IMG/VR virus record: IMGVR_UViG_3300033984_000268
Location: 24,359 to 88,358 of that record
Strand: one strand, 5' to 3'
From: a virus
DNA: 64,000 nucleotides
The translations under genes were made by a program, and so were the position numbers. The notes beneath the pieces were generated by a model. It had not been told where the DNA came from, made no database searches, and saw only the letters and a list, made by a program, of their open reading frames with translations. Shown here piece after piece: positions 1 through 49,798 of the stretch (positions are counted from its first letter, which is position 1; every line of letters starts with the position of its first letter).

Positions 1-3000
1 TAATCTATTAACAACAGGATTGTTTTTAATTTTGAAAAAATTCTTAAACATATTAATAACCAAATTGGTATTGTTGTAAATACCAATTGGAGATGTTTCA
101 AATTTAGTCCACCATTCTGCAGGTATAGCTGAATGAACACTTTTTAATTTTGAAACGTCAGCAATATTTTTTTCAGCATCTGTTATATTGCTAATCTTTG
201 TCGTGTCGTATTTAGAAACTTGTGAAAACTTCGTTACATCTGCAGACAATTCTTCTAGTGCAACATATTGTGCAAAGATTTCAATGTCATCTTTGTTCAC
301 TGTAGAAGAACCGATTCGACCTTCAAGAAAGTTAGTTTCAAAAATAGAATTATTGGACGCTACATTGTTGATACCAAAAAAGGAATGCTTTTCGTATCCA
401 GCATCAAACAATTCTTTTTCATATTCTTTCTTTAAAATATCTAAAGCTTCTTCTCTAATTGCATCTGGTGATAAAGATTTACCGATTGGATTGTTTTCAT
501 TTAATTTTGAATACGTTCCTGATAATTCTTTTTTAATAGTATTATATCTAATCGTTAACGGATTAGAAGAAATATAAATTGCGTCATTAATTGGAACACC
601 TGCCATAACCATAAACAAAAGGTTCGGAGTATTCTCTTTATTACCTTGGATGTTAAACACCCATGCATTTTTACCAACATCGACATAACCGTTAATCAAC
701 TGTGAAATAATATCTGCTGTTAATTTTCCATCTTTTGCATAACGAGAACCAACAGATATTCTTCCATCAATTTCATTGTGATTTAGTTTTAAGGTGTATG
801 CTTTAAAATTATTAATATTCTCTAAAGCTTTTGCTTTTCTAGCACCGTTTGATTTTGGATCGTTGTAAATTTTTATGTCATCATTAAATTTTTCGAGATC
901 TTCTGTTTTAGCTGTATTTAATCTTGAATCAAACGTACTAAACATTGCAAAGAATGTAGATACAACCGCAGCAATACCCAAAGACTCCATACCAACAGAG
1001 TTCTCTTGATGTTTTTGCAAATTGTACAAGTAATCCATTACTGTTGTACGCGAGATTGAATCAGATTTATCAGCATGTATTTTTTCAAGTTTGTCATATT
1101 TACCAGCAGTAATTTTTGTTTCTAAAGCATTCGCTATTGGTAATACATCTCTTGTTGTATTCGGTGTAACCAAATCAACAAAGTTATCTTTAGCTAAAAT
1201 CTTTCTATTAAATAAATCAACCAGTTTATTCTCAAGTCCTTTTACAGAATGACCAACCTTCTTACGTTCTAATTCAGCACCAATTTCTTTTTGAGCTGCT
1301 ATCTGTTTTTTAATTGATGCTTTTTGTTTTTTGAAATTTTCAAATTTCGCACTTAATTCTGTAGAAAGGGTTCCAACATATTGCAAAAATATTCCATCAC
1401 GCAATGTATTGATTGAATCTATTTGTGTACTGATTTTGTCATATTCCGCTTGAAGCAATTCTTTGTATTCATTTGCAGCAGCTTTTCCAAGTTTAGTACC
1501 AAGATAAATTCCTGTTTTTCTTAACTCGTCGTATTGCTCTTTATATTTTTTACGTTCAGGATATAATAAATCTAATGCAGGTTGATACAACTCTGCTTTT
1601 TCAAATGCAACAGTTTGATCTTTAAATAATTTTTCAGACTCATCGTAAACTGCAGATAACTCTTTTTCTAAAGGCGTAATGTTTGATTCATAAAAGTCAG
1701 TGTACTCTGCAGCATAACGATCATAAGCACCAGTATCTCTACCGTAGTAGTTATTCAATTCAGGTTTGCTATTGATAATAGAAATACTTGGATACAAGAA
1801 GAACATTTTATCAATATCGTAATCCGCTCCTGATTTAGCCACAATCTCTGATGGTAAAATTACTTTTGCACCAGAATATTCAGGTAAAAATTCAGCAACC
1901 GTAACCGAGTCTAAAGCATTAGGTCCTTGTGTTGGGATACGAGTTCCAGGAAAGTTTAACAGTGCTTTATGTTTTGCATTCCATTCAGGATCTTTAATCG
2001 ATTCATTTAATCTTTTTAAAGATGCATCGTAATCCATAACACCTTTTTTATTTAAAACACGAATAGATTTTTTATCTGGATGATCTGCATATAATAATTT
2101 TTTGAAATCACCTTGCAATGAAATTTTAACTTCCATTGCAAACGTCAATGAACCATCTTCATCACGACTTTCATAAAACTTTAATCCATTTGTTCCATTA
2201 GCGTCTGCTTCCATGTCTGAACTTTCATACATAGCACCAGACACTTGAACCAAAGCTTCACCATTAACTTTTATTTTACGAAGAGATGAATCAATTAAAG
2301 TAACCACAATTTCTTCGATCTTCTGACTGTTTAATGAATATGATAAATCATCAACTAATCTACCAGAAGCATCCGTTAAAAAAGAAACTTCATGCGGCAA
2401 ATAATCATTTTTAATCATTTCGCGCTTAATGTAATCTGCTAGTTTTGTACTATCTCCTTCATACGTTCCTGTAGCAGGATTGTATTGGTAGTCAATATTC
2501 TCAAGCAAATCTTCTTTTATGTGATCTCTGTACGTTGTTAATATGTCAGTGTACTCTTTATACCATCCATAATTTTTAGATGCAGCAAGGCGTTCTTTTT
2601 CAGTTTTAATAGCCTTCCATTTAGAAATTCTATTAGCATCATCTTTTAAATAATCCATTGGTACACCGTTATCAGCAATACCATGAAGAATCATTTTTTT
2701 CATTTGTGTTGGTAATACTACCTTTTCTTTGTACCCCTCATCAATAAACACTTGATTTTTTAAATGCTTAACTGAAATTATATTTGGAACAAATTGTAAT
2801 TCAGCGTCTATAGACCGATCTTTTTTATAAAACGTATCTGGTTTTTTAACAATTACTTTTTTACCATCAGCATTAGTTACTACATCTACACGTGATAATG
2901 TTGAAAGTTTAGAACCTGATTGCATAGTTGCATAATCAATTCCTTGTTCCATCATTGATTTGTGTAATCCTTCAAGTTTAGTTCCTGCAATTTCATTTGG

Positions 3001-6000
3001 AATCAAAGGAGCTAATGAATACTTATGAAAAGCAGTAAGTCCTAAATTCATTGATTTAAACTTATCTGTTGTACTTAACGGTCCGTAATATTGAAACTTT
3101 TTTACTGGAAACGTAGAACTCATATCAGTTTGTTCAATAGTTTCTCCTTTAACAATTTTTTTATAAAGTGCTTCTTGACCTGAAGACCATTCACCGCAAG
3201 AGATATTTAATAACCTGTATGTATCAAAAGTTATCCAACCTTGACCATCTGCTTCTTCCATATCGTTATATGTAGCAGCAGTTTCTTTACCAAGTTTTTT
3301 TTCAAGTTCTTCTAAATATGATGATGGCACTTTAGACTCATCTAAAATTGCAGTTTTTAAATCGCCAGTATATTGATAATCGCGCTCAATACCCAATTGT
3401 TTAGCGTAACCAAAATTGTTAAATTGTGCATTATTATTTACAAAGTTTTTAAATGATTCATCCGATGCAAATATTTTTCCAGTGGAAATCATACCAGCAT
3501 TACGTTTGTGGAAATCACCACCCTCAATATTGTATAACGCCAAGTCACCTAAAAACAATGATGTGTAATTAGTATTTTGGATAAAGTTATTTACAATGTG
3601 GGCTCTAAAAATTCTACGTTTTGTATCAGAAATTGATTCATCTTCTACAGTTGTACTTTTATATTTCTCAATTAATTCATCTGGAAATACTGTATCTGAT
3701 TTTAATTTATTTAATGTTTCAGCTTTTTTACTAAAGTATGACTTCAAATTAGATTCAATGTTTTTCTTTAATTTAGAACTAAATTGTTTTCTAATATTAA
3801 ATGATTGCAGTTCGTCTATAGAAAGAGAACGAGCTAGCTTCAACAATTCATTTTTAGTATCAACATCTAAAATATCATCAAACAAAAAGAAGCTTTTACC
3901 GCGTTCAAAATACTTAAAATCGATTGCAAAGTTTTCAGGATCAATTAAAATTTCCTGTTCTAATTTTTCTAATCGAACCATTCGAATTAACTCTGCTTCT
4001 AAATGACCAATCATTTCATTACTTAAAATAGAACCAGCGTAGCCATCTGTAAAAATAGCATCAATGTCTTGCGCATTTACAATCAATTCTTTGGTTTTAC
4101 CACCAACAATTGAATTGTTTCTCATTTGATTTGCAAGAACCGTTAATGAAGAAGATTTTGCTTCTGTTCTTGGTATCTCTTGAGCACCATCTAATGTTAA
4201 TAATACATCAGATAAAAATTTTGTTTTTTCATCAGAACCAATTGAAGATATACCTTTATCTTCAGATGTCATATCTATCAATCTACCATCTGAATCAACA
4301 CGTCTTACAGTGTGTATTAATTTGGAACCAGATAAATTCTCAACTGAAATTCTAATACCAGGGTTTCTTTTACCACGCACAGTTGGGTTAAAGTGATCTA
4401 ATTGAAACATATCAACAAACCATTTAGAACCAGCAACAGAAGGATTTTCTAAATAATTAAATTTAGACATCCCTTGCATTGCAATTAATTCATCATAATG
4501 ATTTGCTTTATTTAAAGCCTGTACCTCAACTGTAAGCGATGAGTTTAATACTTTTTCACTTGCCTTCTCGCCATACGCTGTCATCGACATAAACGATGTG
4601 CTATCGCTTGAATACATTGAGTGCAGTTTGATCAAACTATTTATAAATCCAGCTTTTCCAATTTCATCAATTCTCACACCATCTTCATAGTAATAAAAAT
4701 CTTTTGCTAAATCAGATAAACTTCTAATTGCTACACCATTAATTGCATCTTGTTTTTTTATAAGAAAGTCAACAAAATAAGCATATTCACGAGGTTCAAT
4801 TTTTAAATCAGCAGAACCTTCTTTTAGTATCTGTTTAACAATTGGATCATCCGAAATATTAATTCCAAATAATTTTAAAAACTCTACTGGTTCTGCGTAT
4901 GCTCTCAAGGTTGCTGTTGGTGAAAACTGTTTTTGATTTGTTTTAGATAATTTTTTATAATCATCTTTTGAAATAGAACTTCCGCTATCAACAGACGCAT
5001 GCACTTCTTTTAAAAACTTCGAATGATTTTTATTTTCAAAAAAAGATTTAAGGTTTAATGTATATGGTGAAAATTTATTTTCACCTTGTTCTTTACGTTC
5101 ACCAATAATTTCTAATAACGATGTGAAATTATCATTCCAATCATTTTTAATAAATGTTTCGGATGCTGCTGTTCTACCTGAATGCGAAGTTGTACGACTT
5201 TCTACAAAGTTTTCATCTTTTTCTTCATTCGTATATGTAACAGTTTTTTCAATAATTTGTTCTCGTAATAATACGTCCGCTTTATTAAGCGATTGCCAAA
5301 ATGCCAGCCATTGATTCTGTTCTTCAAAGGTTGAAGAAGGTGAACCAGGATTACCAAGTTTAGCAACAAGTTCTTTAATCTGAAAATCGGTAAGACTCGC
5401 AGCAACTAATTTTTGATACATGTCATCGCGATCTAATGTATTCGTTAACAACTTTGCAGTTTTAGCAAGCATCGTTTTAAATGGTGCAAGTTTTGCAAAA
5501 CCTAATGCATTAACTTCTAATGTACCTTTACCATTTTTAGAATAAGAACTGATGGTACTTAAAAGCTGTTTAGTTTGATCATCAACTAATTCTGAAATTG
5601 AAAATTCAGCACCAGTTCTTTCAAAAATAACACGTTCATCATCTTCATATTTTTCTTTTTCAGTATTGACATAACTATACTCATTAATAAACAAAGATGC
5701 CATGTCACCATAAGAGTCTTGTTTAGTTAAGATTGTATCAATAGCATCTAAATTTCCAAAGTTCTGAACAGCTTTATTCAAAGTATCAACCGCAAATTTT
5801 GCTGAAAGATTGTTTGGTTCATCCTCTAATGTTAATTTGTGAATTGCAACTTGTTGTTGTAATCTTTTTTTAACAAAGTCTAAACCCATTTGTGTTAAAA
5901 CAGGATTATTCTGAATTCTAAAAATACCATAGCCATTATATTTATCAACATAAGATTTTTTAAAATCAGCAACAATTGCTTGAGCTTCTTCGTATTCTAA

Positions 6001-8598
6001 TTTATTAGTAATAGGATTAATTGAAGCTAAATGAGTCATAGCAAATATACCATTTTGCGAATTCTCATCTGTATTATCCATAGCATTAACACCTTCGGTA
6101 ACAAATTCAGTAAACAATGCCTGCATTGAGTCCATTACTAAATGTGTTTCTTCTAATGAAAAATTAAGTTCTTTTTGTAATTCAGCTGATTGATATACAG
6201 CATGTGAATCTCTACTGCTAAATTTAGAAACATCAATGTTACCTTCATACAAGTTATTAAACATTGCATTCGTTACACCTTGAACACGATTTAATGCTAT
6301 TGCATCAGATAGACGCATGTTACCAAACAACCCTTTTAAAAGATTAGATATTTTTTCAAAGAATTGTGATACTCTTGCTGAAAGTTTATTTGAATACTTT
6401 CCTTTTGACATAGCAAACTTACGGAACTCTTCAGCCAAATATTCTTCAAGTTCTAATTCATTTGCATTTGCAAAAGCAAGTCTTTTTTCAACACCTTTAA
6501 CTGTTACATCAAAGTATCCAGGTTTGTTTTTTAATTCAGCATACATGTCATTTCTTTCTACCGCAGTAAGTATTCCCATACTATATGCGTGAAATGATTC
6601 GTGGTATAAATCTGTTTTGCTAGAACCCAAATACATATTAATTGAATTACCCACAAACTCTGCTAAAAAGTTTGGACCAAATTCATGAATTTCGTCTGAA
6701 AAATTTACTTTCAGTACACGCAATAATGGATTAGTTTTCATCCATGCATCTGCACGCAATTCTTGTGCTTCAGAAACAGATTCTCTATTTTGAGATGCAA
6801 GTGATTGAAATAAACTTTTTCCTTTATAACTTTCTTTTACAGTATCAAGAACATCTATATTAGCTACAACGTCTTCAACCTGTTCAGTGAATGAAAGGTA
6901 TGGATCAGACGCTTTAAGTTCATTCTGATTGTTTAAATTATATACAGTCGAACCAATTTCAATAGCATTTTCTAATACCGTAGTAAGTTTTGTTTTAATT
7001 ACACCATCTTCAATACCAGTTATAACATGTATTAAACTATCAGGTGTTGATGATGGTTTTAAAACAAAATTTACAACAGGTGATTTTGAAATATAAAGTT
7101 GACCGTTATTGTAATATAATTGTTCAGATGCAGTTGTTTGTTCCAAAGAATCAAAAATCTTTACGTCAGATATATCTCCTTTTTTTGCATAAGGAACTCC
7201 AGTTTTTGTATAAACAAAAGTTCGCAATGCTTCTTTAATATCAGAAAAATTTTCTTCTTTTATTTCAAATAAAACATTTTGAATATAGACATGAGGTAAA
7301 GACTTTTTACCACCTTCTGGTGTAAAGAATTCAGTATATACTTGTTCTTTTGAACGCTGCACCAAACTTGTTAAAAGTTCATTTCTTTTTACTGTAGATT
7401 CAGCCCATACTTTATCATCTTCATTTTCTTTTGTTGTTGTAACAGTTGGTTTAAGATTTACAATTAACTCATATATTGCATCAAACTGCTCATTGGATAT
7501 TTCACTTAAAAGTTTACTATGAATTCTAATTGGTTTGTTAGAACCCTCTGCATTCATTTGTAACCAATAAGCTTTATCTTTTTTACCAATAGAGAATTTT
7601 AATTTAGCCAAGTTTGCTATGGACTTTAATGAATTTCTTTTATTAAGGTTATATACCATAACCCCATGATCACTATTCTTGTAATCAATATCTAAAAGAA
7701 TTGTTTTACCATCTGTAATTCTTTGTTTGATTCGCTCAATTGATTTTAAATAATTGTCAATTTTAGTTTCAATGATACGAGTGGCTTCCTCTATAGGAAC
7801 AGCGTTATTTTCTGCATAGATTGCAGGCAGTTGTTCCGATTGTCTTTGGAATTGATGTTTCTCTGTTTTAATTTTCATTACAGGAGAACTTCCTGTTTCA
7901 GAAACATTTCCAGCTTGATTGAATTTTACAATATTTCCTTTTGCATCAGTAAACAATAAAACTACAGCGCCATCTTTTATTTTAGAATATTCAGAAACAA
8001 CATCTGTTTTTGATAAAACATCCTGGCTTTTAAACGCTCTTAATTTTAAATCTGATGTTGGTGAATTTAAAATAGATAGTTGAACACTTTGTCTGAATTG
8101 AGAAATTCTTTTTTGTTCTGGTGTAGATGGAACATCTGATAACTCTAAATTTAAGTTATAGGTTTTGTTGAACTCTGAAGACATTGCATCAAATCCTTCA
8201 TGTATATTAACAACCGGAGGAAGTTGGTTAACCCCTCCGACCATTTTACCAAGTTGGTTAATGATGTTTGGAAACTCTCCATTTTCATTAACACTAGCTT
8301 CAATGATTCCATCACGTAATGCTTTAATGTTAAGAAATAAATTTTCATTTTTTTTAGTCATTGGCGCATTCATGTGCGCATATAACATTTCAGGTGCAAT
8401 CGTTAAATGCTGTAACACAATCTCTCTAGTCTTTTCTTTTGAAAAACCTAACTGTGGTTCAAAGTCAGACAACGCTTTGTTAAAAAGCATTGTCATCATT
8501 TGTTTTGCAGTAACATTTCCATCATAAAAACTTGGAATCTCTTTCTTAAAATAAGCAGCAAAAAGATTAATTGAATTCGGAGTAATACAAATATTCAT
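1..8598 (-). CDS. Giant virion RNA polymerase protein, crAss-like (partial, C-terminus beyond left edge)
   Basis: One reading frame stays open from an ATG at 8598 to the left edge, giving at least 2866 residues with no stop seen. Two motifs stand out. HESFH (H666, E667, H670) is a zincin-type HExxH metallopeptidase signature. ADYDIDKM (D2259, D2261, D2263) is the DxDxD metal-binding loop of two-barrel RNA polymerases. In crAss-like phages (Cellulophaga phage phi14:2 gp66 is the studied case) such a protein is packaged in the virion, enters the cell with the DNA and transcribes early genes; it is related to eukaryotic RNAi polymerases. A zincin domain in the same chain is known in some crAss-like polyproteins, so processing is plausible but is inference here. 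It is the last gene of the ejection/cargo operon, 1 nt after the 2344-residue gene. The polymerase call is strong from motif, size and context together. Confidence 0.85.
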   Translation of the reverse strand, partial: MNICITPNSINLFAAYFKKEIPSFYDGNVTAKQMMTMLFNKALSDFEPQLGFSKEKTREIVLQHLTIAPEMLYAHMNAPMTKKNENLFLNIKALRDGIIEASVNENGEFPNIINQLGKMVGGVNQLPPVVNIHEGFDAMSSEFNKTYNLNLELSDVPSTPEQKRISQFRQSVQLSILNSPTSDLKLRAFKSQDVLSKTDVVSEYSKIKDGAVVLLFTDAKGNIVKFNQAGNVSETGSSPVMKIKTEKHQFQRQSEQLPAIYAENNAVPIEEATRIIETKIDNYLKSIERIKQRITDGKTILLDIDYKNSDHGVMVYNLNKRNSLKSIANLAKLKFSIGKKDKAYWLQMNAEGSNKPIRIHSKLLSEISNEQFDAIYELIVNLKPTVTTTKENEDDKVWAESTVKRNELLTSLVQRSKEQVYTEFFTPEGGKKSLPHVYIQNVLFEIKEENFSDIKEALRTFVYTKTGVPYAKKGDISDVKIFDSLEQTTASEQLYYNNGQLYISKSPVVNFVLKPSSTPDSLIHVITGIEDGVIKTKLTTVLENAIEIGSTVYNLNNQNELKASDPYLSFTEQVEDVVANIDVLDTVKESYKGKSLFQSLASQNRESVSEAQELRADAWMKTNPLLRVLKVNFSDEIHEFGPNFLAEFVGNSINMYLGSSKTDLYHESFHAYSMGILTAVERNDMYAELKNKPGYFDVTVKGVEKRLAFANANELELEEYLAEEFRKFAMSKGKYSNKLSARVSQFFEKISNLLKGLFGNMRLSDAIALNRVQGVTNAMFNNLYEGNIDVSKFSSRDSHAVYQSAELQKELNFSLEETHLVMDSMQALFTEFVTEGVNAMDNTDENSQNGIFAMTHLASINPITNKLEYEEAQAIVADFKKSYVDKYNGYGIFRIQNNPVLTQMGLDFVKKRLQQQVAIHKLTLEDEPNNLSAKFAVDTLNKAVQNFGNLDAIDTILTKQDSYGDMASLFINEYSYVNTEKEKYEDDERVIFERTGAEFSISELVDDQTKQLLSTISSYSKNGKGTLEVNALGFAKLAPFKTMLAKTAKLLTNTLDRDDMYQKLVAASLTDFQIKELVAKLGNPGSPSSTFEEQNQWLAFWQSLNKADVLLREQIIEKTVTYTNEEKDENFVESRTTSHSGRTAASETFIKNDWNDNFTSLLEIIGERKEQGENKFSPYTLNLKSFFENKNHSKFLKEVHASVDSGSSISKDDYKKLSKTNQKQFSPTATLRAYAEPVEFLKLFGINISDDPIVKQILKEGSADLKIEPREYAYFVDFLIKKQDAINGVAIRSLSDLAKDFYYYEDGVRIDEIGKAGFINSLIKLHSMYSSDSTSFMSMTAYGEKASEKVLNSSLTVEVQALNKANHYDELIAMQGMSKFNYLENPSVAGSKWFVDMFQLDHFNPTVRGKRNPGIRISVENLSGSKLIHTVRRVDSDGRLIDMTSEDKGISSIGSDEKTKFLSDVLLTLDGAQEIPRTEAKSSSLTVLANQMRNNSIVGGKTKELIVNAQDIDAIFTDGYAGSILSNEMIGHLEAELIRMVRLEKLEQEILIDPENFAIDFKYFERGKSFFLFDDILDVDTKNELLKLARSLSIDELQSFNIRKQFSSKLKKNIESNLKSYFSKKAETLNKLKSDTVFPDELIEKYKSTTVEDESISDTKRRIFRAHIVNNFIQNTNYTSLFLGDLALYNIEGGDFHKRNAGMISTGKIFASDESFKNFVNNNAQFNNFGYAKQLGIERDYQYTGDLKTAILDESKVPSSYLEELEKKLGKETAATYNDMEEADGQGWITFDTYRLLNISCGEWSSGQEALYKKIVKGETIEQTDMSSTFPVKKFQYYGPLSTTDKFKSMNLGLTAFHKYSLAPLIPNEIAGTKLEGLHKSMMEQGIDYATMQSGSKLSTLSRVDVVTNADGKKVIVKKPDTFYKKDRSIDAELQFVPNIISVKHLKNQVFIDEGYKEKVVLPTQMKKMILHGIADNGVPMDYLKDDANRISKWKAIKTEKERLAASKNYGWYKEYTDILTTYRDHIKEDLLENIDYQYNPATGTYEGDSTKLADYIKREMIKNDYLPHEVSFLTDASGRLVDDLSYSLNSQKIEEIVVTLIDSSLRKIKVNGEALVQVSGAMYESSDMEADANGTNGLKFYESRDEDGSLTFAMEVKISLQGDFKKLLYADHPDKKSIRVLNKKGVMDYDASLKRLNESIKDPEWNAKHKALLNFPGTRIPTQGPNALDSVTVAEFLPEYSGAKVILPSEIVAKSGADYDIDKMFFLYPSISIINSKPELNNYYGRDTGAYDRYAAEYTDFYESNITPLEKELSAVYDESEKLFKDQTVAFEKAELYQPALDLLYPERKKYKEQYDELRKTGIYLGTKLGKAAANEYKELLQAEYDKISTQIDSINTLRDGIFLQYVGTLSTELSAKFENFKKQKASIKKQIAAQKEIGAELERKKVGHSVKGLENKLVDLFNRKILAKDNFVDLVTPNTTRDVLPIANALETKITAGKYDKLEKIHADKSDSISRTTVMDYLYNLQKHQENSVGMESLGIAAVVSTFFAMFSTFDSRLNTAKTEDLEKFNDDIKIYNDPKSNGARKAKALENINNFKAYTLKLNHNEIDGRISVGSRYAKDGKLTADIISQLINGYVDVGKNAWVFNIQGNKENTPNLLFMVMAGVPINDAIYISSNPLTIRYNTIKKELSGTYSKLNENNPIGKSLSPDAIREEALDILKKEYEKELFDAGYEKHSFFGINNVASNNSIFETNFLEGRIGSSTVNKDDIEIFAQYVALEELSADVTKFSQVSKYDTTKISNITDAEKNIADVSKLKSVHSAIPAEWWTKFETSPIGIYNNTNLVINMFKNFFKIKNNPVVNRL

Positions 8599-8599
8599 A

Positions 8600-11500
8600 T
8601 TATTTACATTGAGTTTTTAAAGTTTCAATAATGGAATCTTCCACAAAAAGATCAGCCGCTACTGATGTGTCAAAGTTACTAAAAACATTTTGAAGCGCAT
8701 CTTTAATAATCTTTCCTTTTTTAGTCGAAGGTTTTGTTTCAAATGATTCCTTTTTTACAGGAACCTCTTCCGCAACCACATCCTTTATATTACTCAAAAA
8801 ATTCAATATATCCAAGTTTTCAAGGTTCGAAGTTTCAACATTAAACACAGAAATTGTATTTTTTGTAGCAGACATTATCTTGTAACGCGCGCCATCTTTC
8901 ATTAATACATCCTCTTTTGAAATTTCATTTGTATAAAATCCTTTTGATAATTTATCATCTACAAGAATGCTTTCAATTGTTGCAATTTGTTTATCAGAAA
9001 ATTTAGAACTTTGTTGTGAAACATATTGATAAACACCAACAGCATAAGCTAAAGATGTAGCCATAGGCCCATTTTTAATTTTAGAAACAAACTCCTTTTG
9101 CAATGGATGTGTTTCGTATGCTTTTTGTGGTTCTTCTTTTACATTTTCTTTAATGAATGCATTAACTAAAACATTTAATTCTTGTTCAACTTTATCTTGC
9201 TCTGTTTTTTCTGCAAGACCTTCCATGAATAAATCACGTTTAGGTTCTTTCTTTGGAGCTTCTTCTTTTTCATACAACCCTTCTGCAACAGCACGATTAT
9301 AAATTATACGTTCTGTTTCAGTTAAGTCTTCTATAGGACCAGTGTAACTACCAGTTTCAATAGTAAACAATTTAGAGTTATAGTATTCTTCCAAATATTT
9401 AAACTCATCCTCAATCATTTTTTGACCTTCTTCTGTAGAAAAGAAATCAATTTCTTCTGGCGTTCTTGGTTCCTCTTCAGTTGACAATACATCTTTCTCT
9501 TCAGTAACAAGTTTGTTTTCAATAATCTTGTTTTCTTTTTTGACTGATGGTAACGCTACAGTTCCTTTCAGTTGTGCTTTTGTACCATGCTCAATCGAAT
9601 ATATTGTACCAATTGGTTTATAACCTTTCTTATTGATTATACGAATACGATATGGATTCTTAACCTCAAGTAATTTTTTGTTTATTTCCGTAGCAATTAC
9701 AGGAACCAACATTCCTTTTCGTTCCAGTTTGAAAAACAAATCAACCAGTTCTTTTGTAGCCAATACTTCATTTTCGCTGAATTTTATATTATCGCTAATA
9801 CGTTTCTTTTCAGCAGTAACCTCACGTTTAAAATCACGCACAGATTTTGCAAAAGCTTCAGCTTCTTGTTTAAAAATCTTTGGATGGTAAATACTAATGA
9901 ATCGACCAAGGGCTTTTCCGATTTTAACGGATACCGTTTTAAGTTTTCCTTTTGCATCTTCTTCCTGGAACTCTAATGTACCAGCAGTTAATGTATCCAA
10001 GTTTGTTGATGTACTTGTAGCTCTTTTCTTTTTACGATCTTTTTTACGTTGGAACTCTTCTTCAGCGTCCAACAGTTCCATAAATTCAGCTTCGTAACGT
10101 GCTTGTGCTTCATCATCAAGTTTTTGTTGTGCTTCCAATTCCACTAGCATTTTCTTTTCAAAAATGAAATGAATTATTCCAGGAACATCTAATGCACGCT
10201 CTTTAAAAGCTTTAATCAAATCTTTACGTTCAGAATCTGTAAGAATTGATGTGTCGATTGTTAATCCAGATTTAGTTAACAAGTGATCCATTAACTCATC
10301 GTCAGACAATACATCTTTTACAGGTTTATCTTTACGTTCTTTACGTTCAGCTTCTACACGTGCAGCATTATCTTTTTGAGCTTGAGTTACAGCTTTTGCA
10401 TTTTGATTGTATTCTACAATAGCATCAATAAAGTCTTTGTGACCATCTTTGATGTATCGATTAATTACATTCATTTCCGACTCTGTTATGTTACCATGCG
10501 ATTTTCCAAACACGTTTGCCATAGCATATTGTAGCGTCAATGGAAATTGTTGATATGGTACGTTTTGATCATATATCAATGAACCATCTGCATTGTAATT
10601 AAAGTCATCTTCACTATATTCGATTGGTTCTAAAGAAGAATCTACAGGAGTATCTGTTACAACATTTGTAGTAGGAGAAACACTAACAGGTAATGCATCT
10701 AATTCTTGTTGTAATTGCTTTCTTTCGATAAGCAGTTTAGTACGTTCGGAGTTAAGCGATGTAATCTCACGACTCTTCGTTATAGTACCACTAGACAACT
10801 TACCAGCTATGTTATTAACCATAGCATCAATATTTCTAATTCGGTTCTGCAAATCAGCTCTTTCTTCAGTAGTATCATTTACTTCTTCAAAAGGCGTTTC
10901 AGTTTCCGTTTCTTCAGTTTCTTCAGTTTCCGTAGTAGGTGCAATGAAATCAGAAATAATCTCAACCGCATCAGGTTTAATGTTAGCATCGGACCAAAAT
11001 TCAAATTGAGTTCGGTCTTTTACTATCATCGTTGCTAACTCATCTACCGTTGTTAAAAAATCAAGTTCATCAACAAAAGCCACTTGTTGATTACCCATCA
11101 TCTTTTTAAACATTCTTTGAAAGAACTCTTTAAGTTTTTGTAAGAAATTACGATTAAGTTTTTGATTTATAACTCTACCAGCTGCAATATCAAACGCTCT
11201 TGCAACTAACTCATGGTGATATTGTCTTGTTCCAAGTTCTTGTTCTGTACCATATACTTGAATTACATATTCACGAATAGAATCATCACTAATAGCATTT
11301 GCTACTAACTGACCATATAAGTCAACATTATTCCTTTCAGCATCAACAAGGAATGGATGCAAGAACATCTCATGCAACATGGTTGTTTCATTCACATTAT
11401 CAGCAACGATGTATGCAGTATTAGTGTTTTCATCATAGAAACCAGCAGTATTAGCATCATCTAATTGAAAGAATATGTTTGAAACAGCTTCTATACCATC

Positions 11501-14500
11501 CTGTAAATTATCTGCATTTCTAGTTAACCAGTCTATCACAGGACCTAATTGACCAGCTTCATACGCAGTCAAGTCTTTTAAGTTCTCAATCAATTCAGAA
11601 ATAGATTCAGACTTATTATACACGTCACGTAACAACTGACTTAATGCAGGTGAATCAAATGATTTTCTTAATTCAATTACTCTGTCATTAACACCGTATC
11701 CACGAACAGCTTCAAATAATATATCAGCAAATTTTTGATGCATTGGATTTTTAAGACTATCTACTATCTTTTTAGCAACGTCTGTTGACGTAACAATTGA
11801 TACATTGGTTCCAAATTGCTTATTCAGCTTTCTGGCCATCTTTTCAAGATCCTTTAATCTCTTTACTTCAGTTTTAGATTTAGCGTTAGTAGAGGTACTT
11901 AATTTACGTTCTTTTTTAGGTTTAGTTTTTTCATCTTCAATCTGTACATCTATAGCTCCTGGTATATCCAATGCTTGAGATGCTATGTTAATACCACGAT
12001 CAAGCATTGTTCCATTAAGCGCAGACTCTTTGCTCAATGATGTCTTAACCATAATCATCATGTTTGTCCATAGAGAACGACGAGAAGAACTAACTTCATC
12101 TTTAACTTGAGCTAAAGTTGCTTGTAATGATTTATTATTTAATACTTCTATTATAAATTCTTCTACATTATTAAACATGGATAGTCCTTCTACATTCGCT
12201 GTAGGAACAGTTTTCAAAAACAACGCTTTGGTTTGTTCCATCATACGTGTAGCAGTAGCTTTCAATGTAGCATTGTCTTCAATGTTTCCGGCAATTTTTT
12301 CTTGAACTATTGCAGAAATAACTAAATTTTCAAACGATACCTGCGCATCTTTAAATTCAGAAGAAGCATATCGAATATCAATGTAAACAACATCTCCTAC
12401 TTTCATTACAGGAGCTTCCGCATTATCAGTAAAAATAAGTTTTGCTTTTGTAGCACTAACTGCTTTTAATAATTCACGTTCAGTGTTTGATAAGTCTTTG
12501 TTGGAAATTAATTTATTTAAAAACGCATCGCCTTCTTTTTCATTCAAATCAATCATCTGATTTAAAGTAAGGCCATATTGTTTAAGAATGTCTTTTGATT
12601 TACGAGTGTCTGTTTTAGAACGTGAATTTTTTCTAGCCAATCCATCTTTACCACCAGTAATAACTTTACCAGTTAAGTTTTTATAGAATCCTTCAACAAC
12701 ACCCTGTGCATATTTTAATTGTGCGTCAGTAGCTTCTTTTTGAGTCGCAATGTCATAAAACCTAGAAGGCATGATTCCTTTTTTCACAAGGTCATCCAGT
12801 TCAGTTAAACTGAAATAAACACCTTTTTCCGCCAACATCTGCATCATCTTGCTTGACTCTTTTCGAACTTGGAATGCTTCTAAAGAGTTACTGATGTGCT
12901 GTGTCTTGTTATCAAGAATATGATTAAGAACTTTTTCCTGTTCAGCAATAAAGTTTCCTGCATACGTTGGATCAGACAAAGTGTTTGCAAGTTTTTTAAA
13001 TGCCTTACCTTCTTTTGTTAGATTAATGTGGTCATATACTGAATCAAATGTACGATTAGCAAGTGCACGTTGTTCTTCTTTTGATAAACCACTTGTTTGA
13101 TCAAATGATGCTAATACGTCAACGTATGCATCAAACATATCATTATGATCACCTTCATTAAATTCACCTACTTCTGCTTTTTCAATTTTATCAACAGATT
13201 CTTTATATTTTTTTAATGCTGCAAGTTTAACAACAGCTTTATCATAGTCACGTTTAGCTGTACCTTTTAAATCTAATCCTTTGCTTCCTTCTACTTGTGT
13301 TTCTAACACTTCAATGTTTGTGTTCAATGAACTAGAATCCAATAATGAATCACGTTCAATTGTAGAAAGATTTAAAGACTTGCTTAATTTTTCATCCATT
13401 GCTTTATTTCTGTCCGCAATAGATTGAATGTTTACATTCGAAACAAGCATTTCTTTTTTAAGATTTTCAAATGCATGGTATCTAACTATATTAGCTCTAT
13501 AGTCCTTATCTGATGGACGTAAATCACTAACCGTAATTGGATTAATCATTTCATTTTGAATCTTGTCATACTGATCTTTATGTTCATTTACACGATCCGC
13601 TTTCTGTACAAGTTTAGCTCTAAAAGCTGCAGCATTTTGTTCAGTAATATCAGTTCTATTAAAAGCTTGATTTAATTCTTGAGGTGTTGCATCTTTAGCC
13701 ATGCCTTTCAAATGTTTTACAAAATCATCTTGCAAATCATTATCAAACATAGTTTGTAGTTGAAGACCAAACGCTTCTTGTTTTAAATCTTCAAGTTCTT
13801 TTGTATTACCGTTTTGAACCGCTTCTAGTATTTTATCCTGGATAGCCTTTTGTGCAAAGACTGGTTTTTTAATTTCCTGTAGGAAGGCGTGTTCATTTTT
13901 GATAAAAGCATTTAATAATTCAGCTTTAGCTTGAATTTGTTTGAACTGCGAATCTTTATCTTTTTTATACTGATCACGATTAAATGCAGCATTGTATAAT
14001 GTTTTGTTACCACCACCTTGAGTAAAATCAAACATTAAACTTTGCGCTGTATTAATTGGGCCCATAAAACCACCTATCAAAGCACCACCCAAAAATGTTT
14101 CCAATCCTGCAGGTTTTCCTTGATTATCAGCATTCATTACCCATTTTCCATTTACTTTAACTTTACCATGAAATAAAGAATTGTATGAACGATCAAAGTC
14201 TTCTGATAAAACATCCCATTGAGAACCACGTAACTGACGTTCTTGCTCTGTCTTACCGTAATAATATTTACTTGTGTTTGAAATCAAGTCTTGACCAAGT
14301 TCTTGCGAACCTTCAGATACACCACTTAATGCAAATTGGCCCCAGTATTCAGCAGCACCACGTCCACCACGTCCACCAAAAGCAACAAGTTTTCCACCAA
14401 TGTATCCTGGTTGACGAGCAACAACATTAAATCCAGCCTTTCCAATTTTATTTAATTTAAAAGCTCTGCTTAAAGCTTTTTCGCTTGTAAACATGTTATC

Positions 14501-15634
14501 AAGACCTAAAGCATTTGTTGCATAAATTAAACCAAAATTTGCTTTATACGTAGATGAATAAACGCTGTTACCACGAGAAGTAATATCATTTAATGCATCT
14601 GTAGAAAGACCTTGTTCTGGATTATCCTTATGCCATTTTTTCATTTCATCGTTAACAAATTCTTGACGAGCCATATTAGCTTCAAGTTTTGCTTCACCAT
14701 GTGACATTGTAAATTTACGAGCATCTCTAACAATAGCACCAACACCAACAGATAAACGTGCAAGACCATTAAGATCTTTTAACTTATCAGCAGTTCTTAA
14801 AAAATCAATTGTGTTAGCTGTAGGATTTATTGCATGAAACGCACCTTTACCTAATTTACTCCAAAAACCACGTGCAGTATTTACATCGGTAAGATGATCA
14901 AATGCACGAAAATATTTATTTGATTGCGAAGATGCTCTCCAGGCTTTACTTATACCATTAAAACCACGTTCTAAATTTTTAGCAGTTCTAGCCATTGCCG
15001 CTGTTCCACCAAGACCACCGCTTAAAAATGTACCAATGGCTAACAATCCTTCTTCTGCAGCAATACCGCCAATAATACCAGCAGTATATCCAGCAGATAA
15101 CATAGCATTACTGGCACTTCCTAATTTACCTTCACGTGTAGAAGAATAGGTTTTCATAATGTCACCAAAGTCTTCATAGTTATCACTAGCTGAAAGGGAA
15201 CCTTCTAAAAAAGTATCCTGTGCACCAATACCGGCAAGTTTTAAAAAACCTGTTCCAGCACGACCAATATCATCCCATCCATCTGTAGCAGCATTAAAAG
15301 CAGTGTTATTATCTTCATACGGATTAAACCCAACTTTACCAAATACATCAGAACCAAAAGACTTTAATCTTTTTAAATCTGTTTGTGTGTATGAAAAGTT
15401 TTGAGATTTTCCAAAAGACTCATTTCGTTTAGGATTTTTTTGTGCAACTAGGCTAGAAGCCTGGTTAAATAATTCTTGATTTTTTTTACGAGAATCAATA
15501 CCTTTCTGAATAAGTTCAAGTTTTTTTGCGTCTTCACCTGATAGTTTTTGTACAGGTTTATTATCAACATATTGAACATCTTTTGCAGATGCTTGATCTA
15601 CACCGCTGTTTTTACCAGTAACTACCTTTGCCAT
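8600..15634 (-). CDS. Giant virion cargo/ejection protein (2344 aa)
   Basis: This 2344-residue protein is immediately upstream of the polymerase giant, with 1 nt between stop and next start. In crAss-like phages the genes before the virion RNA polymerase encode large proteins carried in the capsid and tail and ejected into the cell; the role is assigned from position and size. Visible features are a Gly/Ala-rich hydrophobic stretch near residues 180-215 that could touch a membrane, long charged coiled-coil-like regions, a Thr/Glu-rich run around residues 1560-1580 and many Lys/Glu-rich helices towards the C-terminus. Around residue 1421 is LHEMFLHPF (H1421, E1422, H1426), which looks like a zincin helix but has HExxxH spacing instead of HExxH. 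It may be a degenerate counterpart of the HESFH site in the next protein. I do not recognise a further enzymatic domain. Confidence 0.75.
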   Translation of the reverse strand: MAKVVTGKNSGVDQASAKDVQYVDNKPVQKLSGEDAKKLELIQKGIDSRKKNQELFNQASSLVAQKNPKRNESFGKSQNFSYTQTDLKRLKSFGSDVFGKVGFNPYEDNNTAFNAATDGWDDIGRAGTGFLKLAGIGAQDTFLEGSLSASDNYEDFGDIMKTYSSTREGKLGSASNAMLSAGYTAGIIGGIAAEEGLLAIGTFLSGGLGGTAAMARTAKNLERGFNGISKAWRASSQSNKYFRAFDHLTDVNTARGFWSKLGKGAFHAINPTANTIDFLRTADKLKDLNGLARLSVGVGAIVRDARKFTMSHGEAKLEANMARQEFVNDEMKKWHKDNPEQGLSTDALNDITSRGNSVYSSTYKANFGLIYATNALGLDNMFTSEKALSRAFKLNKIGKAGFNVVARQPGYIGGKLVAFGGRGGRGAAEYWGQFALSGVSEGSQELGQDLISNTSKYYYGKTEQERQLRGSQWDVLSEDFDRSYNSLFHGKVKVNGKWVMNADNQGKPAGLETFLGGALIGGFMGPINTAQSLMFDFTQGGGNKTLYNAAFNRDQYKKDKDSQFKQIQAKAELLNAFIKNEHAFLQEIKKPVFAQKAIQDKILEAVQNGNTKELEDLKQEAFGLQLQTMFDNDLQDDFVKHLKGMAKDATPQELNQAFNRTDITEQNAAAFRAKLVQKADRVNEHKDQYDKIQNEMINPITVSDLRPSDKDYRANIVRYHAFENLKKEMLVSNVNIQSIADRNKAMDEKLSKSLNLSTIERDSLLDSSSLNTNIEVLETQVEGSKGLDLKGTAKRDYDKAVVKLAALKKYKESVDKIEKAEVGEFNEGDHNDMFDAYVDVLASFDQTSGLSKEEQRALANRTFDSVYDHINLTKEGKAFKKLANTLSDPTYAGNFIAEQEKVLNHILDNKTQHISNSLEAFQVRKESSKMMQMLAEKGVYFSLTELDDLVKKGIMPSRFYDIATQKEATDAQLKYAQGVVEGFYKNLTGKVITGGKDGLARKNSRSKTDTRKSKDILKQYGLTLNQMIDLNEKEGDAFLNKLISNKDLSNTERELLKAVSATKAKLIFTDNAEAPVMKVGDVVYIDIRYASSEFKDAQVSFENLVISAIVQEKIAGNIEDNATLKATATRMMEQTKALFLKTVPTANVEGLSMFNNVEEFIIEVLNNKSLQATLAQVKDEVSSSRRSLWTNMMIMVKTSLSKESALNGTMLDRGINIASQALDIPGAIDVQIEDEKTKPKKERKLSTSTNAKSKTEVKRLKDLEKMARKLNKQFGTNVSIVTSTDVAKKIVDSLKNPMHQKFADILFEAVRGYGVNDRVIELRKSFDSPALSQLLRDVYNKSESISELIENLKDLTAYEAGQLGPVIDWLTRNADNLQDGIEAVSNIFFQLDDANTAGFYDENTNTAYIVADNVNETTMLHEMFLHPFLVDAERNNVDLYGQLVANAISDDSIREYVIQVYGTEQELGTRQYHHELVARAFDIAAGRVINQKLNRNFLQKLKEFFQRMFKKMMGNQQVAFVDELDFLTTVDELATMIVKDRTQFEFWSDANIKPDAVEIISDFIAPTTETEETEETETETPFEEVNDTTEERADLQNRIRNIDAMVNNIAGKLSSGTITKSREITSLNSERTKLLIERKQLQQELDALPVSVSPTTNVVTDTPVDSSLEPIEYSEDDFNYNADGSLIYDQNVPYQQFPLTLQYAMANVFGKSHGNITESEMNVINRYIKDGHKDFIDAIVEYNQNAKAVTQAQKDNAARVEAERKERKDKPVKDVLSDDELMDHLLTKSGLTIDTSILTDSERKDLIKAFKERALDVPGIIHFIFEKKMLVELEAQQKLDDEAQARYEAEFMELLDAEEEFQRKKDRKKKRATSTSTNLDTLTAGTLEFQEEDAKGKLKTVSVKIGKALGRFISIYHPKIFKQEAEAFAKSVRDFKREVTAEKKRISDNIKFSENEVLATKELVDLFFKLERKGMLVPVIATEINKKLLEVKNPYRIRIINKKGYKPIGTIYSIEHGTKAQLKGTVALPSVKKENKIIENKLVTEEKDVLSTEEEPRTPEEIDFFSTEEGQKMIEDEFKYLEEYYNSKLFTIETGSYTGPIEDLTETERIIYNRAVAEGLYEKEEAPKKEPKRDLFMEGLAEKTEQDKVEQELNVLVNAFIKENVKEEPQKAYETHPLQKEFVSKIKNGPMATSLAYAVGVYQYVSQQSSKFSDKQIATIESILVDDKLSKGFYTNEISKEDVLMKDGARYKIMSATKNTISVFNVETSNLENLDILNFLSNIKDVVAEEVPVKKESFETKPSTKKGKIIKDALQNVFSNFDTSVAADLFVEDSIIETLKTQCK

Positions 15635-48181: not shown

Positions 48182-49798
48182 TTATAAAGAACCACCTGTT
48201 AAAGGATTTCTCATAACGATTTTCAATACTTTAGTAGGATCTTCTACTTTGATCGCAGGCATTGCTTGCGTCATGTAGATTTGGTATCCATTGAAGTTAC
48301 CAGAAGATTGGAACCCTTGAGTTCTTCCTAGGTAATCCATAGTACCATTCACGTATCTCCACTGAAGGTCTTTATTCCAAGCTGATTTTAACAACTTGAT
48401 GTTATCATTACCATTTTCAGTGATGTCGAAAATAATGAATGAATAAGAAGACAATCTATGACCATCGATGATTGGGTTTTCGATTTCGTTGTTTTGCAAG
48501 TTATCGAAAGCAGGGTTCAATACAAACTTGATGTTTGCTAAGAAAGGAATCATGTACTCTGTGAAAGAGAATCCGAAACCTAAATCCATCCCTTGGTTCT
48601 TAACAGCTCCAAGTTCTTTAGCATTCATAACCAAACCAGAAGACATTGCTTCACGTTTGATAGCTTCATTGATTAATCTCATACCACCCATACCAGTTTG
48701 TACGATCAACTGACGTTGAGAGTCTGGTCCTTGGAAGTCAACTTTACCATTGTAGAAGTTGAAGATTTCAGAACGGAAGATGTCTAAACGGAAATCAGCT
48801 TTGTTGTAAACATGTTTGAAAGACAAATCTAATTGTTTCCAAAGTCCAACTGATAAACGTAAATCATCTGGTCCATCTTGCTTGATACGACCACCTTTAC
48901 CCCACATAAGGTAAGTTTCGATGTCATAAGCAATTTTAGAAAGGTGAGCTGCTTCTAATTTCGTGATGAAAGAACGAACAAGATTTCCATTCTCTTGTGC
49001 TTTTTTCACGTAATCAACACCTCTTTCTTTTACCATACCTTCTAATGTATTGATAGAAGGATCCATAGTTGTATCAAAGTTTTTCCAGATTTCAGTTACA
49101 GGAACTGAACCATCTACTTTCATACCACCTTTCTCCATCAATTTAACTTTAGAAGAGATTGTGTAATGCACGTGTGCATCTGAATTTCCTACGTAGTTGT
49201 AGAACTCACGAGTTGAGTGAGTCATAGAAAGATCAGAATATCTTTCACCGTACTCACCACGAGCAGAACCTACTCTAAAGAAATACGTGTTGTTCGTCAA
49301 GAAACGGTTATCAAATACACCTTCAGAATCATTGTTTGGCATTTGAACTGTATAGATTACACCATCACCTAAATCAAGGATGTCCTCGTCAGTGATATAT
49401 AACTCTTTACCATTGAACTTATCATAAGTGATTATATCACCATGACCAAAAGTTCTTTTGTTCATTTTGATTTTAAACGGTGTACCATCTAAACCTTTGC
49501 TCGTGTTGTTTGGATCTAAATCCTCAACAATGAACGGAAGTTCTTCAGAAACTGGTGTGCTCCATTTATACTCACCTCTTGGGTGTTGAACCTCAATTAC
49601 GTTCTTACCGTTGAATGAAGACATTTGATATAAAGGCATCTCAACTTTTTTAACTTGAGCCCATAATTCAATAGGACCTAAATCATCAGGTTGTGCGTCT
49701 TTCATCAAGTTCATTAAGTGGTAAGAATCCACATGAGAGCTCGCTGTGTAATGGTTGTCACGAAGGAACATACCATTATTTAAAACTGGTGTACTCAT
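48182..49798 (-). CDS. Major capsid protein (538 aa)
   Basis: This 538-residue protein is the second gene after the portal unit and follows the putative scaffold, the usual crAss-like order, and it ends in a strong terminator. Its length is close to other crAss-like capsid proteins. The mix of beta-rich N-terminal part (VKKVEMPLYQMSSFNG, then VEQHPRGEYKWSTP-like order) and helical central part is compatible with an HK97-type capsid fold, with the segment around residues 80-130 a candidate E-loop. It lacks the Cys and collagen features of neighbouring appendage proteins. I rate this as the capsid protein by position, size and composition; I have not compared it with a structure. Confidence 0.75.
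   Translation of the reverse strand: MSTPVLNNGMFLRDNHYTASSHVDSYHLMNLMKDAQPDDLGPIELWAQVKKVEMPLYQMSSFNGKNVIEVQHPRGEYKWSTPVSEELPFIVEDLDPNNTSKGLDGTPFKIKMNKRTFGHGDIITYDKFNGKELYITDEDILDLGDGVIYTVQMPNNDSEGVFDNRFLTNNTYFFRVGSARGEYGERYSDLSMTHSTREFYNYVGNSDAHVHYTISSKVKLMEKGGMKVDGSVPVTEIWKNFDTTMDPSINTLEGMVKERGVDYVKKAQENGNLVRSFITKLEAAHLSKIAYDIETYLMWGKGGRIKQDGPDDLRLSVGLWKQLDLSFKHVYNKADFRLDIFRSEIFNFYNGKVDFQGPDSQRQLIVQTGMGGMRLINEAIKREAMSSGLVMNAKELGAVKNQGMDLGFGFSFTEYMIPFLANIKFVLNPAFDNLQNNEIENPIIDGHRLSSYSFIIFDITENGNDNIKLLKSAWNKDLQWRYVNGTMDYLGRTQGFQSSGNFNGYQIYMTQAMPAIKVEDPTKVLKIVMRNPLTGGSL

What the first reader, a model, noticed from the sequence alone, without database searches (positions are those of the whole stretch)
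1..8598. Giant open frame combining HExxH zincin and DxDxD RNA polymerase motifs
A single protein of at least 2866 residues carries HESFH (H666-H670) and the DYDID catalytic loop (D2259/D2261/D2263). It is the last gene of an ejection/cargo operon. The frame has no stop inside the window, so total size is unknown. The pairing suggests a self-processing virion polymerase polyprotein in an apparently environmental crAss-like phage.
Basis: partly seen in the sequence, partly recalled or inferred. Interest (0 to 1): 0.8.

Follow-up and report, generated by a model that had tools for sequence, protein, structure and literature searches.

The report
Giant virion polymerase with end cysteines
This is the RNA polymerase that a crAss-like phage packs in its particle, joined to a predicted zinc protease; across the whole phage order such giant proteins contain almost no cysteine except one at each end that faces a neighbouring piece, which suggests (not yet shown) that the pieces are hooked end to end by disulfide bonds for delivery into the bacterium.

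Summary
The giant frame is real: 3840 aa (G000:C1:21434-32956, minus strand). It is not the last gene; a 2024-aa gene follows. The phage belongs to Crassvirales (capsid protein PF23898, 4.9e-26). The DYDID half is a crAss-type virion RNA polymerase (profile hit to PDB 6VR4, 1.8e-44). HESFH lies in a real zincin-like domain: HExxH plus E719 are invariant in 50 homologues, and the predicted core fold is confident. Zincin next to this polymerase is already annotated in p-crAssphage, and N4 virion polymerase carries one, so the pairing is not new. Self-processing is possible but unproven.

The unexpected result is a terminal-cysteine rule. The cargo chain A (zincin), B (polymerase), C is cut into genes at different places in different lineages. 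At each cut the upstream piece ends in Cys and the downstream piece begins with Cys; where pieces are fused, those Cys are absent; interiors are almost Cys-free (0.019%). N-terminal Cys versus fusion state: 34/0 against 0/28. Polymerase C-terminal Cys versus next-gene N-terminal Cys: 64/0/0/4. Genomes fetched afterwards obeyed it. I infer that disulfides replace the peptide bond at each cut, linking ejected cargo head to tail. No report of this was found.

The parts
1..8598 (-). Window part of the giant cargo gene (residues 1-2866 of 3840; continues to G000:C1:21434)
8587..8589 (-). Cys4 codon of the giant protein (MNIC...): junction cysteine facing the upstream piece
8606..8608 (-). Only Cys codon of the upstream 2344-aa protein (...TLKTQCK, penultimate residue): partner junction cysteine
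8600..15634 (-). Upstream piece of the cargo chain (part of A), 2344 aa, one Cys in all
6394..6726 (-). Zincin-like domain core, residues 625-735
   Evidence: alignment A4 of 50 homologues; AlphaFold2 models, core pLDDT above 90
6589..6603 (-). HESFH, residues 666-670 (predicted zinc ligands H666, H670; base E667)
6442..6444 (-). E719, predicted third zinc ligand, invariant in 50 homologues
259..3651 (-). RNA polymerase core, residues 1650-2780, homologous to phi14:2 gp66
   Evidence: profile A3 to PDB 6vr4_A, E 1.8e-44; blastp 1.4e-23
1810..1824 (-). DYDID catalytic motif, residues 2259-2263
48182..49798 (-). Crassvirus major capsid protein (placement of the phage)
   Evidence: PF23898, E 4.9e-26

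Best explanation
The gene encodes the central piece (B, with the end of A) of a crAss-like phage's ejected transcription cargo: a two-barrel virion RNA polymerase preceded by a zincin-like protease domain. SHOWN: homology of both domains; and an order-wide rule that the ancestral A-B-C chain is either continuous polypeptide or cut into genes, with a cysteine in the last residues of the upstream piece and another at about residues 3-5 of the downstream piece at every cut, none at outer ends, and almost none inside. In this phage the chain is 2344-aa piece (...QCK) | giant (MNIC ... KEC) | 2024-aa piece (MSC...). INFERRED: in the oxidised particle each facing pair forms an intermolecular disulfide, so that the pieces leave the capsid through the narrow tail in series as one continuous strand; the reducing host cytoplasm then separates them and the polymerase transcribes early genes. 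Cysteine is removed elsewhere to avoid wrong crosslinks. The zincin more likely acts during or after delivery (cutting the chain or a host or envelope target) than in virion maturation.
For: RNAP. Zincin: invariant H, E, H, E, A, F across 50 sequences, mostly 15-50% identical to this one; fold helix-three strands-HExxH helix-helix-hairpin-Glu helix, pLDDT 91.6. Cys rule: window, phi14:2 gp67/66/65 and crAss001 gp47/50/49. In 79 genomes, polymerase N-terminal Cys 34/34 when A is a separate piece and 0/28 when A is fused (Fisher 2.9e-18); polymerase C-terminal Cys and next-gene N-terminal Cys agree in 68 of 68; upstream C-terminal Cys and polymerase N-terminal Cys agree in 52 of 55. Where the first downstream protein itself ends in Cys (6 cases), the next gene starts with Cys in all 5 that can be read; where the upstream protein starts with Cys (2), the gene before ends with Cys in both. 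Triple fusions of about 4,900 aa (L015, L017, L019, L021) hold no Cys at all. Interior Cys 83 in 438,245 aa. Cys is the only fixed residue at these ends. It holds when A is on the opposite strand (crAss001, DAC15, cr128_1, L136, L137) and in TAG-recoded phages. Genomes fetched afterwards obeyed. It exposed a probable start misannotation in crAss002 gp33. crAss001 virions do contain inter-protein disulfides, and cargo must pass constrictions under 50 A (PMC10172136). Independent pairs on the tree: 4 of 4 concordant.
Against: No experiment shows the disulfide. Sequence pairing cannot tell a disulfide from a shared metal site or from each Cys binding a third party. Only about 6 independent changes of the N-terminal Cys on the tree; 4 independent pairs cannot reach significance. 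Three genomes (L092, L095, L099) have the upstream Cys 24-77 residues from the end. Gut members carry extra internal Cys. In Intestiviridae the C1-like protein also has a near-terminal Cys without an obvious partner. Disulfide formation would need oxidation after lysis or inside the capsid. No thioredoxin or glutaredoxin was found in this genome, though the host supplies them.
Confidence: 0.66

Rival explanations
1. Self-processing polyprotein: the zincin cuts the giant protein, probably near its own C-terminal side, to release the polymerase, in the virion or after ejection.
For: Active site intact in all 50 RNAP-fused copies while the paralogous domain in the downstream protein has often lost HExxH. 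Spacing HExxH to DxDxD is 1465 +/- 123 aa, and polymerase genes without a zincin begin at about that place. Upstream genes of those lineages lack the domain. P1 DdrB is processed and carries a zincin (PMC5512222).
Against: Association with fusion is not significant after allowing for kinship. crAss001, cr128_1 and p-crAssphage keep the zincin at the C-terminal side of a separate gene. crAss001 gel bands agree with full-size proteins. N4 vRNAP with its zincin is packaged uncut. No cleavage site identified.
Confidence: 0.25
2. The terminal cysteines of neighbouring pieces jointly bind a metal ion, or are docking residues of a non-covalent interface, rather than forming a disulfide.
For: Same pairing data; the N-terminal ends of the downstream proteins share a loose C-[PIV]-N-x-[NSH]-x-P pattern, which could be a docking motif.
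Against: Usually only one Cys per end and no second conserved ligand such as His or Cys nearby; Cys is the only fixed residue.
Confidence: 0.15
3. Each terminal Cys attaches its protein separately to something else (portal, C1 protein, another copy of itself) and the pairing is a by-product.
For: C1-like proteins in Intestiviridae also end in or near Cys.
Against: Outer ends (start of A, end of C) lack Cys, and fusion removes exactly the two Cys that would face each other.
Confidence: 0.1
4. Nucleotide-level artefact, for example signals around gene starts that happen to encode Cys.
For: TGT codons dominate (89 TGT to 9 TGC at N ends, 82 to 20 at C ends).
Against: Both codons are used, at varying distance from the gene end; the rule holds when A and B are on opposite strands and in recoded genomes.
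Confidence: 0.02

Closest known systems
crAss-like virion RNA polymerase, phi14:2 gp66 (PDB 6VR4) and crAss001 gp50
   Same: Homologous polymerase core with DxDxD, same neighbours and order, giant size
   Different: Here fused to about 800 further N-terminal residues including a zincin and to a long C-terminal extension; 3840 against 2180 and 2412 aa
p-crAssphage gp45 'RNAP associated protein fused to zincin protease' and gp44 (BK010471)
   Same: Zincin directly upstream of the polymerase in the same cargo block, already annotated as such
   Different: There the zincin is in a separate gene and the polymerase is fused to the downstream piece instead
Phage N4 virion RNAP (gp50) and polyvalent proteins with zincin MPTase domains (PMC5512222)
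   Same: Giant injected protein combining RNA polymerase and a HExxH metallopeptidase
   Different: N4 uses a T7-type single-subunit polymerase and the zincin is C-terminal; no Pfam zincin family matched here
P23-45 gp96 tape-measure-fused virion RNAP (PMC10770324)
   Same: Two-barrel RNAP fused into a giant ejected virion protein
   Different: Tape measure of a long tail; different layout
Disulfide-stabilised phage virions (crAss001 tail and portal vertex, PMC10172136; phage Milano tail, PMC10811340)
   Same: Inter-protein disulfides formed in phage particles
   Different: Those stabilise the shell and tail; the proposed ones would link ejected cargo end to end and be undone in the host

Membership tests
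Crassvirales (crAss-like phages) | Crassvirus major capsid protein | tested here: met
   PF23898, E 4.9e-26, window 48182-49798
crAss-type virion RNA polymerase | Sequence homology to phi14:2 gp66 over the polymerase core | tested here: met
   Profile hit to 6vr4_A, E 1.8e-44, several collinear stretches
crAss-type virion RNA polymerase | DxDxD catalytic motif | tested here: met
   D2259/D2261/D2263, invariant in the aligned relatives
crAss-type virion RNA polymerase | Presence in the virion and transcription activity | not testable with these tools
   Shown for phi14:2 and crAss001 relatives (PMC7886860, PMC6235969), not for this uncultured phage
Zincin-like metallopeptidase (clan, not a named family) | HExxH plus downstream Glu ligand | tested here: met
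   Invariant H666, E667, H670, E719 in 50 sequences
Zincin-like metallopeptidase (clan, not a named family) | Core fold: helix, three-stranded sheet, HExxH helix, Glu helix | tested here: inconclusive
   Predicted elements match the order given in PMC5512222 at pLDDT 91.6, but Foldseek gave no significant match; several top weak hits are SPRTN, PprI and selecase
MPTase-PolyVal and other Pfam zincin families | Match to a curated family model | tested here: not met
   No zincin Pfam family matched any of 50 members
Self-processing polyprotein | Cleavage into defined mature products by its own protease | not testable with these tools
   No proteomics of this phage; crAss001 bands argue against cleavage of gp47/gp50 in the virion
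Disulfide-linked cargo chain (proposed here) | Cys on both sides of every gene break and on no fused or outer end | tested here: met
   soft exceptions L092, L095, L099
Disulfide-linked cargo chain (proposed here) | Actual disulfide in the virion | not testable with these tools
   Needs non-reducing gel or crosslink mass spectrometry

The most novel reading that the evidence does not exclude
Throughout Crassvirales the ejected transcription proteins travel as one covalent strand: wherever evolution cut the gene, a disulfide between a C-terminal and an N-terminal cysteine took the place of the peptide bond, to be reduced in the host cytoplasm after threading through the tail. This would be an order-wide, redox-released, head-to-tail chain of giant proteins.
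Probability: 0.62. Interest if true: 0.9.

Novelty: new variant of a known kind. Interest (0 to 1): 0.78.

Why it matters
How very large folded enzymes are pushed out of a phage particle in the right order and released as separate working proteins is an open question in Crassvirales, which are among the most abundant phages of the human gut. A physical link between the pieces that breaks by itself in the reducing cytoplasm would explain ordered delivery, the near absence of cysteine in hundreds of kilodaltons of protein, and why the same chain can be cut into genes at different places without loss of function. It can be tested on cultured phages (crAss001, phi14:2, DAC15) with a gel run with and without reducing agent. 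The zincin result also shows that polymerase-protease pairing occurs in crAss-like as well as N4-like virion polymerases.

Tried and rejected
Pfam and PHROG scans of the giant and its neighbours gave no meaningful hits. The PDB sequence search with the single giant protein gave only a chance hit. The zincin profile touched Pro-Pro endopeptidase only at E 0.029 with 8 sequences and nothing with 50: not claimed as homology. Foldseek of the zincin model was not significant, first with a floppy tail, then with the trimmed core. The co-occurrence of zincin and fusion looked strong (46/4/2/16) but does not survive a test on independent pairs, so I did not use it as proof of self-processing. I considered that conserved end cysteines come from overlapping gene-start signals and rejected it because of opposite-strand cases. 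Intein or trans-splicing was rejected: nothing intein-like was seen at the ends (inspection, not a dedicated search). Native chemical ligation was rejected because the Cys is at position 3-5, not 1 or 2. A thioredoxin in this genome was sought and not found. A search of viral contigs with the Rudgehvirus jaberico polymerase returned nothing. Literature searches for disulfide or cysteine with crAss cargo found no report; subscription papers, including the full phi14:2 RNAP paper, were not readable, so a prior mention cannot be excluded.

Full report
WHAT IS THERE. The window is part of an 88,358-base IMG/VR virus record. The frame on the minus strand that starts at 8598 and leaves the window at 1 was followed into the rest of the record: it ends at G000:C1:21434 and encodes 3840 aa without interruption. 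The gene is not the last of its block: a 2024-aa gene follows 1 bp later on the same strand, then genes of the opposite strand. The capsid protein (window 48182-49798) matches the Crassvirus capsid family at 4.9e-26.

POLYMERASE. Blastp to phi14:2 gp66 gives 1.4e-23, and a five-sequence profile of residues 1650-2780 hits 6vr4_A (the gp66 crystal structure) at 1.8e-44 in collinear stretches that include the DxDxD loop. Shuffled copies of the protein contain a D.D.D motif 59% of the time, so the homology, not the motif, is the evidence.

ZINCIN. Homologues of residues 600-860 were found in cr108_1, cr10_1, cr4_1 (TAG read as Gln) and crAss001 gp47, and in about 45 further viral contigs. In an alignment of 50 sequences, mostly 15-50% identical to this one, the only invariant columns are H666, E667, H670, E719, A722 and F725. 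AlphaFold2 gives a confident core (pLDDT 91.6): helix, three strands, HExxH helix, helix, hairpin, Glu-bearing helix, the order described for zincin MPTase domains of polyvalent proteins (PMC5512222). Foldseek found no significant match, although its weak top hits include HExxH proteins (SPRTN, PprI, selecase). No Pfam zincin family matched. A related domain sits near the N-terminus of the downstream protein, intact in this phage (HEFGH) but without HExxH in many relatives.

LAYOUT ACROSS THE ORDER. In 81 polymerase genes dereplicated at 90%, the zincin, when fused, lies 1465 +/- 123 aa before DxDxD. In lineages with a free-standing polymerase gene, that gene starts at the corresponding place (DxDxD at 1365-1605 from the ORF start; profile alignment), and their upstream genes lack the zincin, with crAss001 as an exception. 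The p-crAssphage record already names its gp45 'RNAP associated protein fused to zincin protease', and N4 virion RNAP carries a zincin.

THE TERMINAL CYSTEINES. Aligning the C-terminal ends of the giants showed one invariant column: a cysteine at or near the last residue. In this phage the upstream 2344-aa protein has a single Cys, its penultimate residue (...KTQCK); the giant has three in 3840 aa, at 4, 1801 and 3840 (last); the 2024-aa downstream protein has one, at position 3 (MSC). The same holds for phi14:2 gp67 (...NTIC), gp66 (MAC ... QECK), gp65 (MSC), and for crAss001 gp47 (...RCNS), gp50 (MSKRC ... ICGANTLYEL), gp49 (MAKKC), even though gp47 lies on the other strand.

THE RULE AND ITS TESTS. 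Call the ancestral chain A (with zincin), B (polymerase), C (with second zincin). Where two consecutive segments are separate genes, the upstream one ends in Cys (usually 0-6 residues from the end) and the downstream one starts with Cys (residues 3-6, nearly all 3-5). Where they are fused, neither Cys is present. Polymerase N-terminal Cys: 34 of 34 genes with fewer than 2600 residues before DxDxD, 0 of 28 with more (Fisher 2.9e-18; the 2600 cut was set after seeing the bimodal lengths). Polymerase C-terminal Cys agrees with next-gene N-terminal Cys in all 68 pairs (64 both, 4 neither). Upstream C-terminal Cys agrees with polymerase N-terminal Cys in 52 of 55; in the three exceptions the upstream Cys is 24-77 residues from the end. 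In genomes where C is itself cut, the first C-piece has Cys at both ends and the next begins with Cys (5 of 5 readable); where A is cut, the same in 2 of 2. Triple fusions L015, L017, L019 and L021 (about 4,900 aa) have no cysteine at all. The interior of chain proteins has 83 Cys in 438,245 residues (0.019%) against 0.19% in other ORFs of 250 aa or more on the same loci (that control set includes non-genic frames, so it is rough). At the ends, Cys is the only fixed residue.

NEW GENOMES. Genomes fetched after the rule was formed obey it: p-crAssphage, jaberico, cr11_1, DAC15, Fpv1, cr111_1, cr128_1, then Dulem virus 41, cr50_1, cr1_1, cr118_1, cr109_1 and cr4_1 (TAG-recoded; cr4_1 had been fetched earlier for its zincin), cr126_1, cr3_1 and loci L136, L137. 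crAss002 gp33 breaks it as annotated, but its frame contains MSCTPSNPK at residue 33, a likely true start. On the polymerase tree the N-terminal Cys changes 6 times and the C-terminal one 4 times; the 4 independent pairs all agree, which is too few for significance.

MECHANISM. Shown: the pairing rule, its independence of strand and genetic code, and Cys depletion. From the literature: these proteins are virion components in crAss001 and phi14:2 (PMC6235969, PMC7886860); crAss001 virions hold inter-protein disulfides in tail and portal vertex, and cargo must pass constrictions under 50 A, partly unfolded (PMC10172136). Inferred: one Cys on each side of each cut makes an intermolecular disulfide in place of the peptide bond, so that the cargo is threaded out in series and separates in the reducing cytoplasm. 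A metal site or separate anchoring is possible but explains the fusion data less well. I put the disulfide chain at about 0.62.

ZINCIN ROLE. The intact site in all RNAP-fused copies implies selected activity. Cutting inside the virion would undo the continuity that the cysteines seem to protect, and crAss001 and N4 argue against cutting before ejection, so action during or after delivery is favoured. This remains inference.

LIMITS. Gene ends rest on first-ATG calls; phylogenetic independence is limited; the full phi14:2 polymerase paper and other subscription papers could not be read, so an earlier mention of the cysteines cannot be excluded.

Noticed in passing
L007:17389-17680 (cr108_1): The polymerase gene of cr108_1 is interrupted exactly inside the DxDxD motif: one ORF ends ...AKAGSD and the next, about 290 bases on, begins with YDIDKMY, suggesting a self-splicing intron inserted in the active-site codons.
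   Followed up: partly
L009:8258-11671, L010:19526-22327, L026:13388-17884, L031:13523-17176: The C-terminal part of the giant is a variable enzyme module: AlkB-like 2OG-Fe(II) oxygenase (PF13532) in L009 and L010, AAA_33 P-loop in L026, DUF7831 in L031; this phage has a pattern resembling a SLOG nucleotide-binding domain (guess, no Pfam hit).
   Followed up: partly
L081:14525-19513, L049:13897-18702, L066:14182-19701 and others: The zincin-like domain of the downstream cargo protein has lost HExxH in a large group of relatives while the polymerase-fused copy never has, suggesting a second, non-catalytic role such as packaging.
   Followed up: partly
L132:15088-27825 (crAss002 gp33): Annotated start is probably 32 codons too early; an in-frame MSCTPSNPK restores the N-terminal cysteine motif.
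   Followed up: yes
L131:4588-7161 (p-crAssphage gp47), L132:4393-6066, L133:3950-6223: C1-like cargo proteins of Intestiviridae also have a single Cys 1-10 residues from the C-terminus with no evident partner.
   Followed up: no
L034:6416-7135: A P-loop (GTSGSGKST) follows the zincin directly in L034, apparently an inserted nucleotide-binding domain between zincin and polymerase.
   Followed up: no
L131:29978-31245, L129:28304-28573, L130:10974-11219: Several gut crAss-like phages encode thioredoxin-like proteins close to the cargo block; none was detected in this genome.
   Followed up: partly
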